Below, one piece after another: positions 16,204 through 58,775 of a stretch of DNA of 64,000 nucleotides; the first letter of the stretch is position 1, and every line of letters starts with the position of its first letter. This DNA is from Actinophytocola algeriensis. GTDB lineage: Bacteria; Actinomycetota; Actinomycetes; Mycobacteriales; Pseudonocardiaceae. The stretch is taken from assembly GCF_014203735.1 (NCBI RefSeq), contig NZ_JACHJQ010000006.1, positions 381,698 to 445,697 on the forward strand, written 5' to 3'. Made by a program: the position numbers and the translations under genes. The notes under the pieces are model-generated. The model saw nothing but the letters and a program-made list of their open reading frames with translations, made no database searches and was not told the DNA's origin.

Positions 16204-16279
16204 TGCCGGACGGGCCTCCTCGCCGGAGGGGCAGATCTCCGGAATGGCTCCTGGGTTGGCAACGGGGTTGGTTTGGCAT
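16204..16279 (-). repeat. Dispersed intergenic repeat core, copy A
   Basis: Read on the minus strand, this 76-bp stretch is nearly identical to 37830-37905: TGCCAAACCAACCCCGTTGC, then CAACCCA, then a variable joint, then CCGGAGATCTGCCCCTCCGG, CGAGGAGGCCCGTCCGGCA. The CCTCC-GGCGA-GGAGG part can fold. Shorter copies lie at 45092-45134 and 58231-58269. Nearby at 16316-16345 are GCGCCTTT units like those at 44919-45032. It sits just after the GH28 stop and is not coding in any convincing way. Confidence 0.75.
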
Positions 16280-36999: not shown

Positions 37000-37560
37000 T
37001 CAGCGGTGCTGGTCGGCTGCCTCCTGTACCCGGGCCACGTGCTTGTCCCACCACGCCGTGTCGCCCGTGTCCTCGTGGTCCTTACCCGCCCGGCCGTCGA
37101 TCATCTCCCGGACGATGTCGGCGTGCCCCGCGTGCTGGGCGGTCTCCGCGACCACACGCACGAGCAGGTGCCCGAGGGTCGTCGTGCGGCGCTCCTCCGG
37201 CCACCACGCGACCGTCGCGGGCGCGTCGAGCCCGAACTGCTCCAGCGACTCGTCCGAGTGCTGCCACGCCCGCCGGTACAGCCCGACGAGGTACTCCCGG
37301 CTCTCCTCCGGTAACGCCCACATGTCCGCGCTGTCCCAGATCGACTCGTCGGTCCACGGCATGGGCACCGGCGCGCTCCGCCCCACACACTCACCGAGGT
37401 AGCCGAACTCGATCCCGGCCAGGTGCTTGACGAGCCCCAGCAGGTTGGTGGCAGTGGGCGTCATCGGTCGGCGGATGTCGTACTCCGACAGCCCGGCCAA
37501 CGACGCGACCATCGCGTCGCGGCCCTGCTGGAGGTACTGGCGCAGGTCAGCGGTAATCAT
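37000..37560 (-). CDS. DinB-family protein
   Basis: 186 residues from the ATG at 37560. DinB four-helix bundle: LRQYLQQGRDAMVASLAGLS, the first His in NLLGLVKHLAGIEFGYLGEC, and the last metal-ligand His region RVVAETAQHAGHADIVREMI. It ends WWDKHVARVQEAADQHR, a common actinomycete tail. Probably a thiol-dependent transferase or hydrolase; the substrate is unknown. Its start lies about 55 bp from the palindrome array at 37615, which sits in its upstream region. Confidence 0.9.
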   Translation of the reverse strand: MITADLRQYLQQGRDAMVASLAGLSEYDIRRPMTPTATNLLGLVKHLAGIEFGYLGECVGRSAPVPMPWTDESIWDSADMWALPEESREYLVGLYRRAWQHSDESLEQFGLDAPATVAWWPEERRTTTLGHLLVRVVAETAQHAGHADIVREMIDGRAGKDHEDTGDTAWWDKHVARVQEAADQHR

Positions 37561-37614
37561 GCGGCCAGGCTAGATCGCACCACCGACAAAACCGCTGGCC
37601 GCGTCCACCTGCGG

Positions 37615-37812
37615 CGGGCGGCCCTTCATCACCGCGAACGTTACGAAGGGGCCCTTCATCACACCGGACGTCACGAAGGGGCCCTTCATCACGGTGAGCA
37701 CAACGAAGGGCCCCTTCATCGCACCGGACGTCACGAAGGCGTCCTTCATCGCACCGGACGTCACGAAGGCGTCCTTCATCGCACCGGACGTCACGAAGGC
37801 GTCCTTCATCGC
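37615..37812. repeat. Array of seven 30-bp palindromic repeats
   Basis: Units begin at 37645, 37675, 37705, 37735, 37765 and 37795 (exactly 30 bp apart), plus a degenerate unit at 37615. Each has GAAGGGGCCCTTC (or GAAGGGCCCCTTC, or GAAGGCGTCCTTC) followed by ATC and a spacer such as ACACCGGACGTCAC that holds a second short palindrome (GACGTC or AACGTT). The arms vary but stay complementary. Read as protein the minus strand gives a run of MKGPFVTSGV-type decapeptides, but there is no ribosome site. The family recurs at 58499-58775. Confidence 0.85.
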
Positions 37813-37821
37813 ACCACTCCC

Positions 37822-37905
37822 GAGGCTGCCTGCCAAACCAACCCCGTTGCCAACCCAAGGCCATCCCGGAGACCTGCCCCTCCGGCGAGGAGGCCCGTCC
37901 GGCAG
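37822..37905 (+). repeat. Dispersed intergenic repeat core, copy B
   Basis: GAGGCTGCCTGCCAAACCAA, CCCCGTTGCCAACCCAAGGC, CATCCCGGAGACCTGCCCCT, CCGGCGAGGAGGCCCGTCCGG: the longest copy. It is nearly identical to the reverse of 16204-16279 over 75 bp, and its middle matches 45092-45134 and 58231-58269. It directly follows the palindrome array. 37906-37979 shows nothing else apart from CCCGCCGGGC-like motifs. Confidence 0.8.
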
Positions 37906-37979
37906 CACACCCGCCCGGCGAGGACAAACCCCGCCGGGCAAGAACTTCCGCCAAGAACAACACCCGACCGGGCCAGAAA

Positions 37980-38381
37980 CTAACGAGCAGACCCCGCGAG
38001 CTCGGGAACAAGATTCAACACCCGATCGAGTGCCATCATCATGAGCGGACGGGTCACCACACTGGTGTTCGCCCGGATCTGGAGCGAGCTGCCGAGGGCG
38101 GCGCAGCGCTCGTGGTGCGCCAGTAACACGGCCAGACCCGCGGACCCGATGAACGTGAGTCCCGTCAGGTCCACCACGACCGGGGCCGGTGGCACGACGA
38201 TCGCCTCCGCCTGGTCGAGCTGGGCCGACAGCCTCGGCGCGGTCAGCATGTCCAGCTCGCCGCCCGCCTGAACCACCACCGACAGGTTGTCGACGGTCCG
38301 CTGCACCCACAGCACATCATCGATCTCGGTCACAACGACCTCCACTGGATGGCGCGAGCCTTGGGGGAGACGGTCGAGCAT
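37980..38381 (-). CDS. STAS-domain anti-sigma factor antagonist
   Basis: 133 residues from the ATG at 38381. After a short N-terminal tail the STAS fold runs from VDNLSVVVQAGGELDMLTAP to the end, with the conserved VVDLTGLTFIGSAGLAVLLA segment; Ser of the IGSAG motif is the expected phosphorylation site. These proteins free a sigma factor by binding its anti-sigma kinase. A second STAS module, fused to an ATPase, lies at 55395-56066. Only one gene; no sigma or anti-sigma gene is adjacent. A GTG 13 codons in is an alternative start. Confidence 0.88.
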   Translation of the reverse strand: MLDRLPQGSRHPVEVVVTEIDDVLWVQRTVDNLSVVVQAGGELDMLTAPRLSAQLDQAEAIVVPPAPVVVDLTGLTFIGSAGLAVLLAHHERCAALGSSLQIRANTSVVTRPLMMMALDRVLNLVPELAGSAR

Positions 38382-44829: not shown

Positions 44830-44918
44830 TGCTGTGTCCACCGACGTTTGCCGGGTCCTGCGGCGGGTCCGGCCAAGCCGACGGTGATCGCCGTACCCGG
44901 GGTGGGGCTGGGTTTGCC

Positions 44919-45032
44919 GTGAAAGGCGCGTTCAGGACATCGCCGGCGCTGTGAAAGGCGCGTTGAGGGCGTTGAGTGCCCTGAAAGCGCCTTTCACAGC
45001 ATGGCCAACGCCGTGAAAGCGCCTTTCACGGC
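44919..45032. repeat. GTGAAAGGCGC-type palindrome cluster
   Basis: Four units at about 44919, 44951, 44981 and 45013 (30-32 bp apart). GCTGTGAAAGGCGC (44948-44961) and GCGCCTTTCACAGC (44987-45000) pair over 14 bp with AGGGC/GCCCT inside. GCCGTGAAAG (45010-45019) and CTTTCACGGC (45023-45032) form a 10-bp stem around CGC. They differ in sequence from the GAAGGGGCCCTTC units but share their spacing, and may terminate the Nramp-like gene. Confidence 0.7.
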
Positions 45033-45091
45033 ACAACGGGATGTCGTGAGGGCGCGCAGGCGCCGGGGGGCGCGAGCCCCACACCACCCCT

Positions 45092-45134
45092 GAGGCTGCC
45101 TGCCATCCCAGAGACCTGCCCCTCCGGCGAGGAG
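45092..45134 (+). repeat. Dispersed intergenic repeat core, copy C (shortened)
   Basis: GAGGCTGCCTGCC joined directly to ATCCCAGAGACCTGCCCCTC and CGGCGAGGAG. The segment AAACCAACCCCGTTGCCAAC plus CCAAGGCC present in copy B is missing, so it is an internally deleted copy. Followed by GGCAAACCCGTCCGGAGGCA-type direct repeats to about 45190. Confidence 0.7.
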
Positions 45135-45247
45135 CCGCCGGAGGCAAACCCGTCCGGAGGCAAACCCGTCCGGCGAAGACACCCATCCGGCGAGAACAAA
45201 CCACGAACCCACCCCGGCCAACGTAAAGCAAGCAGCACTAGCGCCGC

Positions 45248-58230: not shown

Positions 58231-58269
58231 CCGGGCTCCTCGCCGGAGGGGCAGGTCTCTGGGATGGCC
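58231..58269 (-). repeat. Dispersed intergenic repeat core, copy D (short)
   Basis: On the minus strand GGCCATCCCAGAGACCTGCC and CCTCCGGCGAGGAGCCCGG match the middle of copies B and C. The flanks are different from those copies. Confidence 0.7.
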
Positions 58270-58309: not shown

Positions 58310-58446
58310 CCTGCCATCCCGTCGACCTCACTGCGTGCTATCACACCGGCTCAAGGGGGCGGTTTTCGACTTTTGGCGCCGGTTTCGTTGGTGGTGCCCC
58401 CTTGATCCGGTGTGATCGGGCTTCGCCAGGTCGACGGGATGGCAGG
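58310..58446. repeat. Imperfect inverted repeat with 51-bp arms
   Basis: CCTGCCATCCCGTCGACCT (58310-58328) pairs with AGGTCGACGGGATGGCAGG (58428-58446), ATCACACCGG (58340-58349) with CCGGTGTGAT (58407-58416), and TCAAGGGGGC (58351-58360) with GCCCCCTTGA (58396-58405). The 11-nt segments between the outer and inner stems are the same length but not complementary. A 35-nt loop remains. About 39 of 51 positions pair. I see no gene in it. Confidence 0.8.
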
Positions 58447-58498: not shown

Positions 58499-58775
58499 GG
58501 AAGACGCTTTCAGGACGTGGCCGATGTCATGAAGGGGCCCTTCATCACGGTGAGCACAACGAAGGGGCCCTTCATCGCACCGGGCGTTACGAAGGGGTCC
58601 TTCATCACGTTGAGCGCAACGAAGGGTCCTTCATCACACCGAAGGGGTCCTTCATCACGTTGAGCGCAACGAAGGGTCCTTCATCACACCGGGCGTTACG
58701 AAGGGGGTCCTTCGGGACGTTGAGCGTCCCGCAGGGGCCTTTCGTGGCATCGCAGCTGTCTCGAAGGCGTCTTTC
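58499..58775. repeat. Second array of GAAGGGGCCCTTC-type palindromes
   Basis: Palindromic units begin near 58500, 58531, 58561, 58591, 58621, 58641, 58671, 58700, 58731 and 58763, mostly 29-32 bp apart with one 20-bp step. Early units are GAAGGGGCCCTTC; later ones drift to GAAGGGGTCCTTC and GAAGGCGTCTTTC. Spacers (ACGGTGAGCACAAC, GCACCGGGCGTTAC, ACGTTGAGCGCAAC) recur between this array and that at 37615. It lies between the TetR gene and the GH99-like operon. Confidence 0.85.

What the first reader, a model, noticed from the sequence alone, without database searches (positions are those of the whole stretch)
37615..37812. Array of 30-bp palindromic units (GAAGGGGCCCTTC family)
Seven units repeat with exact 30-bp spacing. 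Each holds a 13-bp palindrome (arms GAAGGG/CCCTTC) and a second mini-palindrome in the spacer (GACGTC or AACGTT). Where the centre changes (GGGGCCC, GGGCCCC, GGCGTCC) the outer arms stay complementary, which suggests selection on the paired form or on a dyad-binding protein. It is not a described repeat family that I recognise. Options: nucleoid-protein or regulator landing array, multi-hairpin RNA terminator, or a non-autonomous spreading element. Read as protein the units give a decapeptide run, but no ribosome site is visible.
Basis: seen in the sequence. Interest (0 to 1): 0.75.

Follow-up and report, generated by a model that had tools for sequence, protein, structure and literature searches.

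The report
Spreading hairpins at gene ends
The 30-base palindrome array belongs to a large family of folding DNA repeats that sits mostly at the ends of genes in a group of soil bacteria, probably stopping or capping messages there, and that appears to have replaced ordinary stop signals at some sites.

Summary
The array is real: six full 30-bp units and one partial unit at 37620-37815, with a second array at 58531-58726. The family is large: 306 near-matches in this genome against 2 for the reversed control. Two cores (GAAGG-N3-CCTTC) with a gap of 4-30 bp occur in 46 of 120 genomes of the family, reversed control 0. The window's genus is inferred to be Actinophytocola.

In related genera two units usually form one long hairpin; their centres are reverse-complementary in 102 of 121 pairs (shuffle mean 17). 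The hairpins lie at gene 3' ends, often between convergent genes. At two orthologous convergent junctions all 57 readable copies hold a hairpin, but only 17 carry the exact core; others carry variants, unrelated hairpins or T-tailed terminator-like ones. I read the family as a dispersing 3'-end (terminator-like) hairpin, tandemly amplified here. The window array is absent between the orthologous genes of A. oryzae.

Against plain intrinsic termination: no U-tract. In this genome adjacent units are direct repeats, not complementary. In an unselected A. oryzae block the placement bias is weak. What spreads the repeat is unknown.

The parts
37620..37815 (.). 30-bp palindrome array: one partial and six full units, cores GAAGG-N3-CCTTC at 37645, 37675, 37705, 37735, 37765 and 37795 with centres GGC, GGC, GCC, CGT, CGT, CGT
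58531..58726 (.). second array of the same unit (spacings 30, 30, 50 among the four units that match the oriented 18-mer)
58709..58744 (.). two-unit hairpin form (family of CGAAAGGCCCCTTCGGGACGTTGAGTGTCCCGAAGGGGCCTTTCG, 94% over 36 bp) at the right end of the second array
37592..37979 (.). approximate extra DNA between the STAS and MST/DinB genes that is absent at the orthologous junction in G002 (A. oryzae); read by eye, exact boundaries and any target duplication not resolved
37980..38381 (-). STAS-domain gene (PF13466, PF01740), upstream of the array in the direction of transcription; the array begins about 165 bp after its stop
37000..37560 (-). mycothiol-S-transferase/DinB-like gene (PF04978, PF12867), downstream of the array; its start lies about 60 bp from the partial unit
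37860..37892 (-). copy of another dispersed repeat (GGCTCCTCGCCGGAGGGGCAGGTCTC family) next to the array

Best explanation
The array belongs to a dispersed family of 3'-end hairpin elements found widely, though patchily, in Pseudonocardiaceae. The basic module is a 30-bp dyad (GAAGG-N3-CCTTC plus 17 bp). In most of the related loci examined two modules in the 30-bp register make one long hairpin, median stem 26 bp, soon after stop codons and mostly between convergent genes. There it ends transcripts in both directions or caps their 3' ends against exonucleases. The family spreads and is homogenised, by an unknown route, and takes over sites that in other species hold ordinary terminator-like hairpins. 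In the window's genome (inferred Actinophytocola) the module has been amplified into tandem arrays. The window's array lies between a STAS gene and an MST/DinB gene that are side by side in A. oryzae, where it would act as a multi-hairpin 3' end for the STAS transcript. Seen in sequence: the family, the register, the gene-end placement, pairing in relatives, change of hairpin at two orthologous junctions, and the array-free junction in A. oryzae. Inferred: termination or 3'-end protection, the direction of the change (gain here rather than loss there), and spread by copying or conversion.
For: Context: in this genome, of 44 array clusters, 29 are convergent, 12 codirectional, 2 divergent and 1 at a contig edge; background gene pairs without arrays are 50 convergent of 337 (Fisher p = 1e-12; 7 of 74 for gaps of 150 bp or more, p = 8e-11). 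Cross-species: 117 places in 115 loci are 61 convergent, 37 codirectional, 4 divergent, 12 at a locus edge and 3 inside genes; Fisher p = 5e-26 for the 102 with both neighbours against gaps of 90 bp or more. Codirectional cases are nearer the upstream stop in 33 of 37, median 22 bp, against 162 bp to the next start. Pairing: centres complementary in 102 of 121, 2000 shuffles mean 16.8, maximum 29. Folding: 40 of 40 own arrays of three or more units (both strands) and 112 of 112 relatives (one strand) have z below -2. Substitution: at two orthologous convergent junctions, perfect arms of 10 bp or more in 27 of 27 and 27 of 30, against 0 of 109 flanking coding segments; the GAAGG-N3-CCTTC core is in only 6 and 11. 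Register: in two 400-kb blocks, 24 of 27 and 41 of 53 successive exact-core spacings of 120 bp or less equal 30, reversed control 0. Turnover: 7 elements with both flanking genes orthologous between the two genomes (the orthologs adjacent in 4), 0 shared; array-free junction in A. oryzae.
Against: No U-tract after the stem: 1.38 T per 8 nt against a baseline of 1.32, and 4 or more T in only 4 of 184 ends, so classical intrinsic termination is not shown. No RNA data were available. In this genome neighbouring units are direct repeats (64 of 138 with identical centres) with no excess of complementary centres, so an array need not work like the two-unit hairpin. In the 400-kb blocks the placement bias is weak: convergent 4 of 9 in G000 and 6 of 23 in A. 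oryzae against 58 of 322 and 60 of 342 of all gene pairs, and divergent 4 of 23 in A. oryzae against 61 of 342. Own codirectional arrays are nearer the upstream stop in only 8 of 12. Convergent gaps also tolerate insertions, so placement alone does not prove function. The two junctions were chosen because the reference species carried the element. Gene calls come from my own untested script. The window's own array is codirectional, 60 bp from a start codon.
Confidence: 0.7

Rival explanations
1. A purely selfish MITE- or REP-like repeat without a host role, which accumulates between convergent genes because insertions there do least harm.
For: Rapid turnover, 0 of 7 testable elements shared between two species of one genus; presence patchy among genomes, 46 of 120; mosaic flanks with other repeats; weak placement bias in the A. 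oryzae block; the pneumococcal BOX, RUP and SPRITE repeats are read as parasitic on the same kind of placement (PMC3049150, abstract and sections 5-6).
Against: At two orthologous junctions a hairpin is present in all 57 readable copies while its family changes (z of -3.69 or lower against letter shuffles). In relatives the codirectional copies sit close to the upstream stop (median 22 bp). No Y1 transposase was found in this genome, and neither precise ends nor target duplications were established.
Confidence: 0.2
2. A DNA landing array for a dimeric regulator or nucleoid protein: each 30-bp unit is a dyad site.
For: The core dyad differs by only 0.9% between arrays while spacers differ by 32%. 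The core-to-core register of 30 bp holds even where the orientation of units flips. Each arm of the long hairpin is itself a palindrome, which a terminator does not need. In the A. oryzae block divergent gaps are not avoided (4 of 23, background 61 of 342).
Against: Rare between divergent genes in the larger sets (2 of 43 in this genome, 4 of 102 across species). In relatives the two units pair with each other, centres included. Two orthologous sites carry hairpins with unrelated sequence in other species.
Confidence: 0.07
3. A translated decapeptide repeat (MKDAFVTSGA type).
For: 30 bp keeps all frames open; long ORFs cross the array, and my codon-usage gene caller accepts it as coding if it is not masked. 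The window array itself has no frame-breaking spacing.
Against: No Pfam match for two of the crossing ORFs, one on each strand. In other arrays of this genome spacings of 28, 31 and 50 bp occur (4 of 155 core-to-core). In relatives the units are inverted pairs, mostly placed after stop codons. Core positions are fixed while the centre codons change amino acids (my reading).
Confidence: 0.03

Closest known systems
[quoted passage not shown] PMC3049150, abstract and sections 5-6 read
   Same: Dispersed repeat folding like a terminator, enriched between convergent genes and close to gene 3' ends, thought to be parasitic and partly co-opted as terminators.
   Different: SPRITE is AT-rich with an 18-bp stem and a U-rich tail, 30 copies in the genome studied. 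This family is GC-rich with no U-tract, has arms that are themselves palindromes, a 30-bp register, tandem arrays in some genomes and up to hundreds of copies.
BOX elements (boxA-boxB(n)-boxC) of S. pneumoniae; PMC3049150, abstract and sections 5-6 read
   Same: Modular repeat with a variable tandem middle unit and structured ends; large copies create ORFs.
   Different: No sequence relation was tested. The unit here is itself a palindrome of 30 bp, and the end modules are not constant in all copies.
REP/BIME (repetitive extragenic palindromes)
   Same: Intergenic palindromes, often 3' of genes, in clusters (recalled).
   Different: REPs mobilised by RAYT need a Y1 transposase (recalled); none was found in this genome. 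The RepRanger tool separates REPs from T-tailed terminators (PMC12306157, passages). Terminator replacement at orthologous sites is not part of the definition I recall.
U-less (I-shaped) terminators / highly structured U-lacking transcript ends of high-GC actinobacteria; PMC8269248 (S. clavuligerus) and PMC12207403, passages read
   Same: Long stable GC hairpins at transcript ends with few U: 353 of 535 highly structured ends in S. clavuligerus lack a U-rich tract.
   Different: Those are described as individual sites, not, in the passages I saw, as a repeat family with a shared core and register. Streptomyces terminators still show 3-4 U in 10 nt, more than here.

Membership tests
Classical intrinsic (Rho-independent) terminator | Stable GC-rich RNA hairpin shortly after the stop codon | tested here: met
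   For the two-unit form in relatives: median stem 26 bp in 92 elements; median 22 bp from the upstream stop in 37 codirectional cases; folding z. The window array is about 165 bp from the stop.
Classical intrinsic (Rho-independent) terminator | U-tract directly after the stem | tested here: not met
   1.38 T per 8 nt against baseline 1.32; 4 of 184 ends with 4 or more T
Classical intrinsic (Rho-independent) terminator | Measured transcript end at the element | not testable with these tools
   No RNA data held
REP/BIME with RAYT | Y1 (TnpA_REP-like) transposase in the genome | tested here: not met
   PF01797: 0 matches in G000 (98% complete); the control search rang in 5 of 14 named genomes
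REP/BIME with RAYT | Many dispersed extragenic palindromes | tested here: met
   306 near-matches genome-wide; placement
MITE / BOX / SPRITE type mobile repeat | Presence/absence at orthologous sites | tested here: met
   7 elements with both flanking genes orthologous, 0 shared; junctions read
MITE / BOX / SPRITE type mobile repeat | Terminal inverted repeats with target-site duplication | tested here: inconclusive
   Boundaries at the junctions read were not sharp enough
CRISPR array | Constant repeat with unique spacers and cas genes | not tested
   Spacers recur between arrays and the unit is a short dyad; cas genes were not looked for
Rfam RNA families | Match above the gathering score | tested here: not met
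   0 matches in the window

The most novel reading that the evidence does not exclude
A lineage-wide selfish terminator: a repeat that spreads by colonising and overwriting existing terminators, so that the host keeps a working transcript end while its sequence is swapped. The self-palindromic 30-bp arms would be the recognition module of the copying or conversion machinery, or of a dedicated termination factor, in Pseudonocardiaceae. One junction copy looks, by eye, like a half-overwritten chimaera (L245 against L246 and L249).
Probability: 0.25. Interest if true: 0.8.

Novelty: new variant of a known kind. Interest (0 to 1): 0.55.

Why it matters
It gives a readable case of gene-end hairpins being replaced wholesale at fixed gene junctions within a genus, which makes the question of how terminators are gained, swapped and homogenised directly testable. 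It bears on how high-GC actinobacteria, with few U-tracts, end transcripts. It also warns annotators that these arrays can be read as decapeptide-repeat genes. In one search, 7 of the 10 genomes of the genus that holds A. orientalis and A. roodepoortensis have 101-147 copies of the two-unit form (the other three 0-2), which could serve as ready-made insulators if they work.

Tried and rejected
RAYT-mobilised REP: no Y1 transposase in this genome. Rfam: nothing in the window. Viral origin: no match of the two-unit pattern in the viral contig collection. Coding sequence: no Pfam match for two crossing ORFs. Landing array: see rivals. Inter-unit pairing as the general rule: it holds in relatives but fails in this genome. 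Canonical U-tract terminator: not met. A 60-bp dimer period in own arrays is only weakly supported: spacer divergence 0.30 adjacent against 0.23 next-but-one, p = 0.012.

Errors of mine: one search used a spacer of 13-15 bp where the unit has 12, so its zero says nothing; one search used the extra genome-contig scan that is allowed when the first finds nothing. In one search the printed tally lumped convergent with codirectional; one search recounts it. One of the five terms was mistyped with an extra base.

Dropped rows and limits: three in-gene loci (L083, L092, L115) left out of the pairing and fold counts, 112 of 115 loci kept; 92 of 112 used for the U-tract test (single, complementary pairs away from locus ends); 3 of 30 loci at the L131 junction were unreadable, and the two junction stretches longer than 130 bp gave no control segments. 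The junction z-scores use letter shuffles, not dinucleotide shuffles. Two of the 44 own clusters hold a single unit, and one of them is probably a chance match. The 40 own regions come from the first 100 listed places on contigs C1-C6. The own 400-kb block contains the window, so its two arrays count in both sets. Gene calls are from a small script of mine, not checked against a standard annotator.

Paper searches (10 of 10 used): none of the listed titles and abstract starts describes this family; several listings were cut at 8-15 papers (one search had 769 hits, 15 listed). Four correctly typed core strings were found in no paper of the open-licence library. Subscription papers are not covered.

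Full report
What is there. The reported array is real. Tandem Repeats Finder places it at 37620-37815 with period 30, 6.5 copies, no indels and score 231. It holds six full cores GAAGG-N3-CCTTC and one right half. A second array of the same unit lies at 58531-58726. The cores are far beyond chance (21 matches, shuffle mean 0.72, maximum 5).

Family size and range. In the window's genome (G000, 9.73 Mb) the oriented 18-mer ACGAAGGNNNCCTTCATC has 166 + 140 matches with up to one mismatch, against 1 + 1 for the reversed control, and 93 + 66 exact against 0. Two cores with a free gap of 4-30 bp occur in 46 of 120 genomes of the family (this one included): 224 times in G000, 366 in G002 of the same genus and 110-154 in four genomes of one other genus (g16); the reversed control is 0 in all 120. 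With the gap fixed at 17 the pattern occurs in 25 of 298 genomes of the order: 18 of this family and 7 of one other family, with 1-4 copies each. By title 106 are from Pseudonocardiaceae (family membership recalled) such as Amycolatopsis, Kutzneria, Lentzea, Prauserella, Saccharomonospora, Actinophytocola and Actinomycetospora, and 9 from elsewhere. g16 holds A. roodepoortensis and A. orientalis: their loci match genomes of that genus at 100%.

Anatomy. In relatives the usual form is two cores 30 bp apart inside one long inverted repeat. The centres of the two cores are reverse-complementary in 102 of 121 pairs, shuffle mean 16.8, maximum 29 of 2000 (relatedness among the loci is not corrected for). 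The median stem is 26 bp, range 18-32, in 92 elements. In G000 the unit is amplified into arrays of mostly 2-9 in the same register. Of 155 spacings of the oriented 18-mer 127 are 30, 24 are 29 or 31 at orientation flips (core-to-core 30), two are 31 without a flip, one is 28 and one is 50 (my count). In the two 400-kb blocks the 30-bp spacing again dominates: 24 of 27 in G000 and 41 of 53 in A. oryzae, with 0 in reversed sequence. Between arrays the core differs by 0.9%, the centre by 34% and the spacer by 32% (109 internal units; the unit search itself favours intact cores). In G000 neighbouring units are mostly direct repeats: complementary centres in 13 of 138, shuffle mean 21, identical in 64. 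Own arrays of three or more units fold better than dinucleotide shuffles on both strands (40 of 40 with z below -2), as do 112 of 112 relatives on the one strand folded; the window array has z -3.8 on the plus strand and -6.6 on the minus strand. Repeats of palindromes fold well by construction, so this alone is weak evidence. Some own arrays carry a further two-unit hairpin at the right end (8 BLAST hits in the 40 array regions, 1 in the window) and about half share other repeat modules on the left.

Where it sits. With my own gene caller, 44 array clusters in the 40 fetched regions and the window are 29 convergent, 12 codirectional, 2 divergent and 1 at a contig edge. Gene pairs without arrays in the same stretches are 50 convergent of 337 (p = 1e-12), or 7 of 74 for gaps of 150 bp or more (p = 8e-11). 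Across species, 117 places are 61 convergent, 37 codirectional, 4 divergent, 12 at locus edges and 3 in genes; p = 5e-26 against 16 convergent of 249 gaps of 90 bp or more. Codirectional elements are nearer the upstream stop in 33 of 37 across species, 11 of 13 in the A. oryzae block, 8 of 12 in own loci and 3 of 4 in the own block. Against this, the bias is weak in the two 400-kb blocks: convergent 4 of 9 and 6 of 23, against 58 of 322 and 60 of 342 for all gene pairs (12 of 117 for element-free gaps of 80 bp or more in A. oryzae), and divergent 1 of 9 and 4 of 23 against 58 of 322 and 61 of 342.

Turnover. The window array lies between a STAS gene and an MST/DinB gene, both on the minus strand. 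In A. oryzae the orthologous genes (MST/DinB 74% identical) are neighbours with no array: read by eye, the STAS stop is followed after 9 bases by a possible start, while my gene caller gives a 114-bp gap; about 35 bp just upstream of the MST/DinB start can be aligned between the two species. Of the more distant orthologs, G001 has a two-core hairpin just after the stop of a different upstream gene, and no element is seen within 420 bp in G003 and G004. Over the 400-kb blocks with 141 reciprocal best hits, 7 elements have both flanking genes orthologous (2 of 9 from G000, 5 of 23 from A. oryzae; the orthologs adjacent in 4); none is shared.

Substitution at fixed junctions. Two convergent junctions of Amycolatopsis were sought in 80 genomes of the genus each; loci were returned for the 30 best. 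The stretch between the stops was readable in 27 and 30. All 57 copies hold a hairpin (z of -3.69 or lower against letter shuffles); perfect arms of 10 bp or more are present in 27 of 27 and 27 of 30 (the other three have 7-9), and in 0 of 109 flanking coding segments, whose mean z is -0.6 and 0.1. The sequence of the hairpin changes: exact GAAGG-N3-CCTTC cores in 6 and 11, other hairpins that contain both GAAGG and CCTTC in 14 and 2, and neither in 7 and 17, several of these with runs of 4-5 T like ordinary terminators. L245 and L249 look by eye like intermediates, one with a left arm of a different subfamily, one with a single mispaired centre. Both junctions were picked because the reference species had the element, and the genomes of the two sets overlap.

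How it most likely works. The hairpin stands where transcripts of convergent or upstream genes must end, and other hairpins stand in for it in other species. So I hold that it makes or protects transcript 3' ends, in both directions where genes converge. The stem is not followed by a U-tract (1.38 T per 8 nt against 1.32). In S. clavuligerus 353 of 535 highly structured transcript ends lack a U-rich tract and are read as possible I-shaped terminators or Rho-dependent ends (PMC8269248, passages), and Streptomyces terminators are long and U-poor, with 3-4 U in 10 nt (PMC12207403, passages). I recall that U-less intrinsic termination is disputed for mycobacterial polymerase. Whether the polymerase stops at the hairpin, or the RNA is trimmed back to it, is therefore open. 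The spread mechanism is unknown: no Y1 transposase in G000, no viral-contig copies, and unclear insertion ends. Conversion between copies is my preferred inference.

Known or new. The kind is known: dispersed terminator-like repeats such as SPRITE, and modular BOX repeats (PMC3049150). The family, with self-palindromic arms, a 30-bp register, tandem arrays and change of hairpin at orthologous junctions, was not seen in the listings of ten searches of an open-licence library, which does not cover subscription papers.

Noticed in passing
window 16216-16248, 37860-37892, 45102-45136, 58234-58268: Another dispersed palindromic repeat (GGCTCCTCGCCGGAGGGGCAGGTCTC family), 4 copies in the window and 14 in the 400-kb block that contains the window, in places beside the 30-bp arrays.
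   Followed up: partly
window 58397-58445 and surroundings: A further repeat module (CCCCCTTGATCCGGTGTGATCGGGCTTCGCCAGG...) with a possible large inverted partner near 58340; 14 matches in the 40 array regions.
   Followed up: partly
window 44915-45173: A third mosaic site with two modules of the array flanks and a 16-bp tandem repeat but no listed 30-bp unit.
   Followed up: no
window 37570-37809: Unmasked, the array passes my codon-usage gene caller as a gene, so false decapeptide-repeat proteins may occur in annotations.
   Followed up: partly
genomes G146, G201, G244, G280, G310, G342, G374 (one other family of the order): Few copies of a similar two-unit hairpin, mostly GAAGGGCCCCTTCTTAAC...GTTAAGAAGGGGCCCTTC, in another family, perhaps Micromonosporaceae (compare L081, Micromonospora).
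   Followed up: no
L272, L273 (Amycolatopsis junction): Beside a hairpin lie palindromes of a different repeat (AATGCCACATTGGGTGC...), perhaps another dispersed family at the same gene junction.
   Followed up: no
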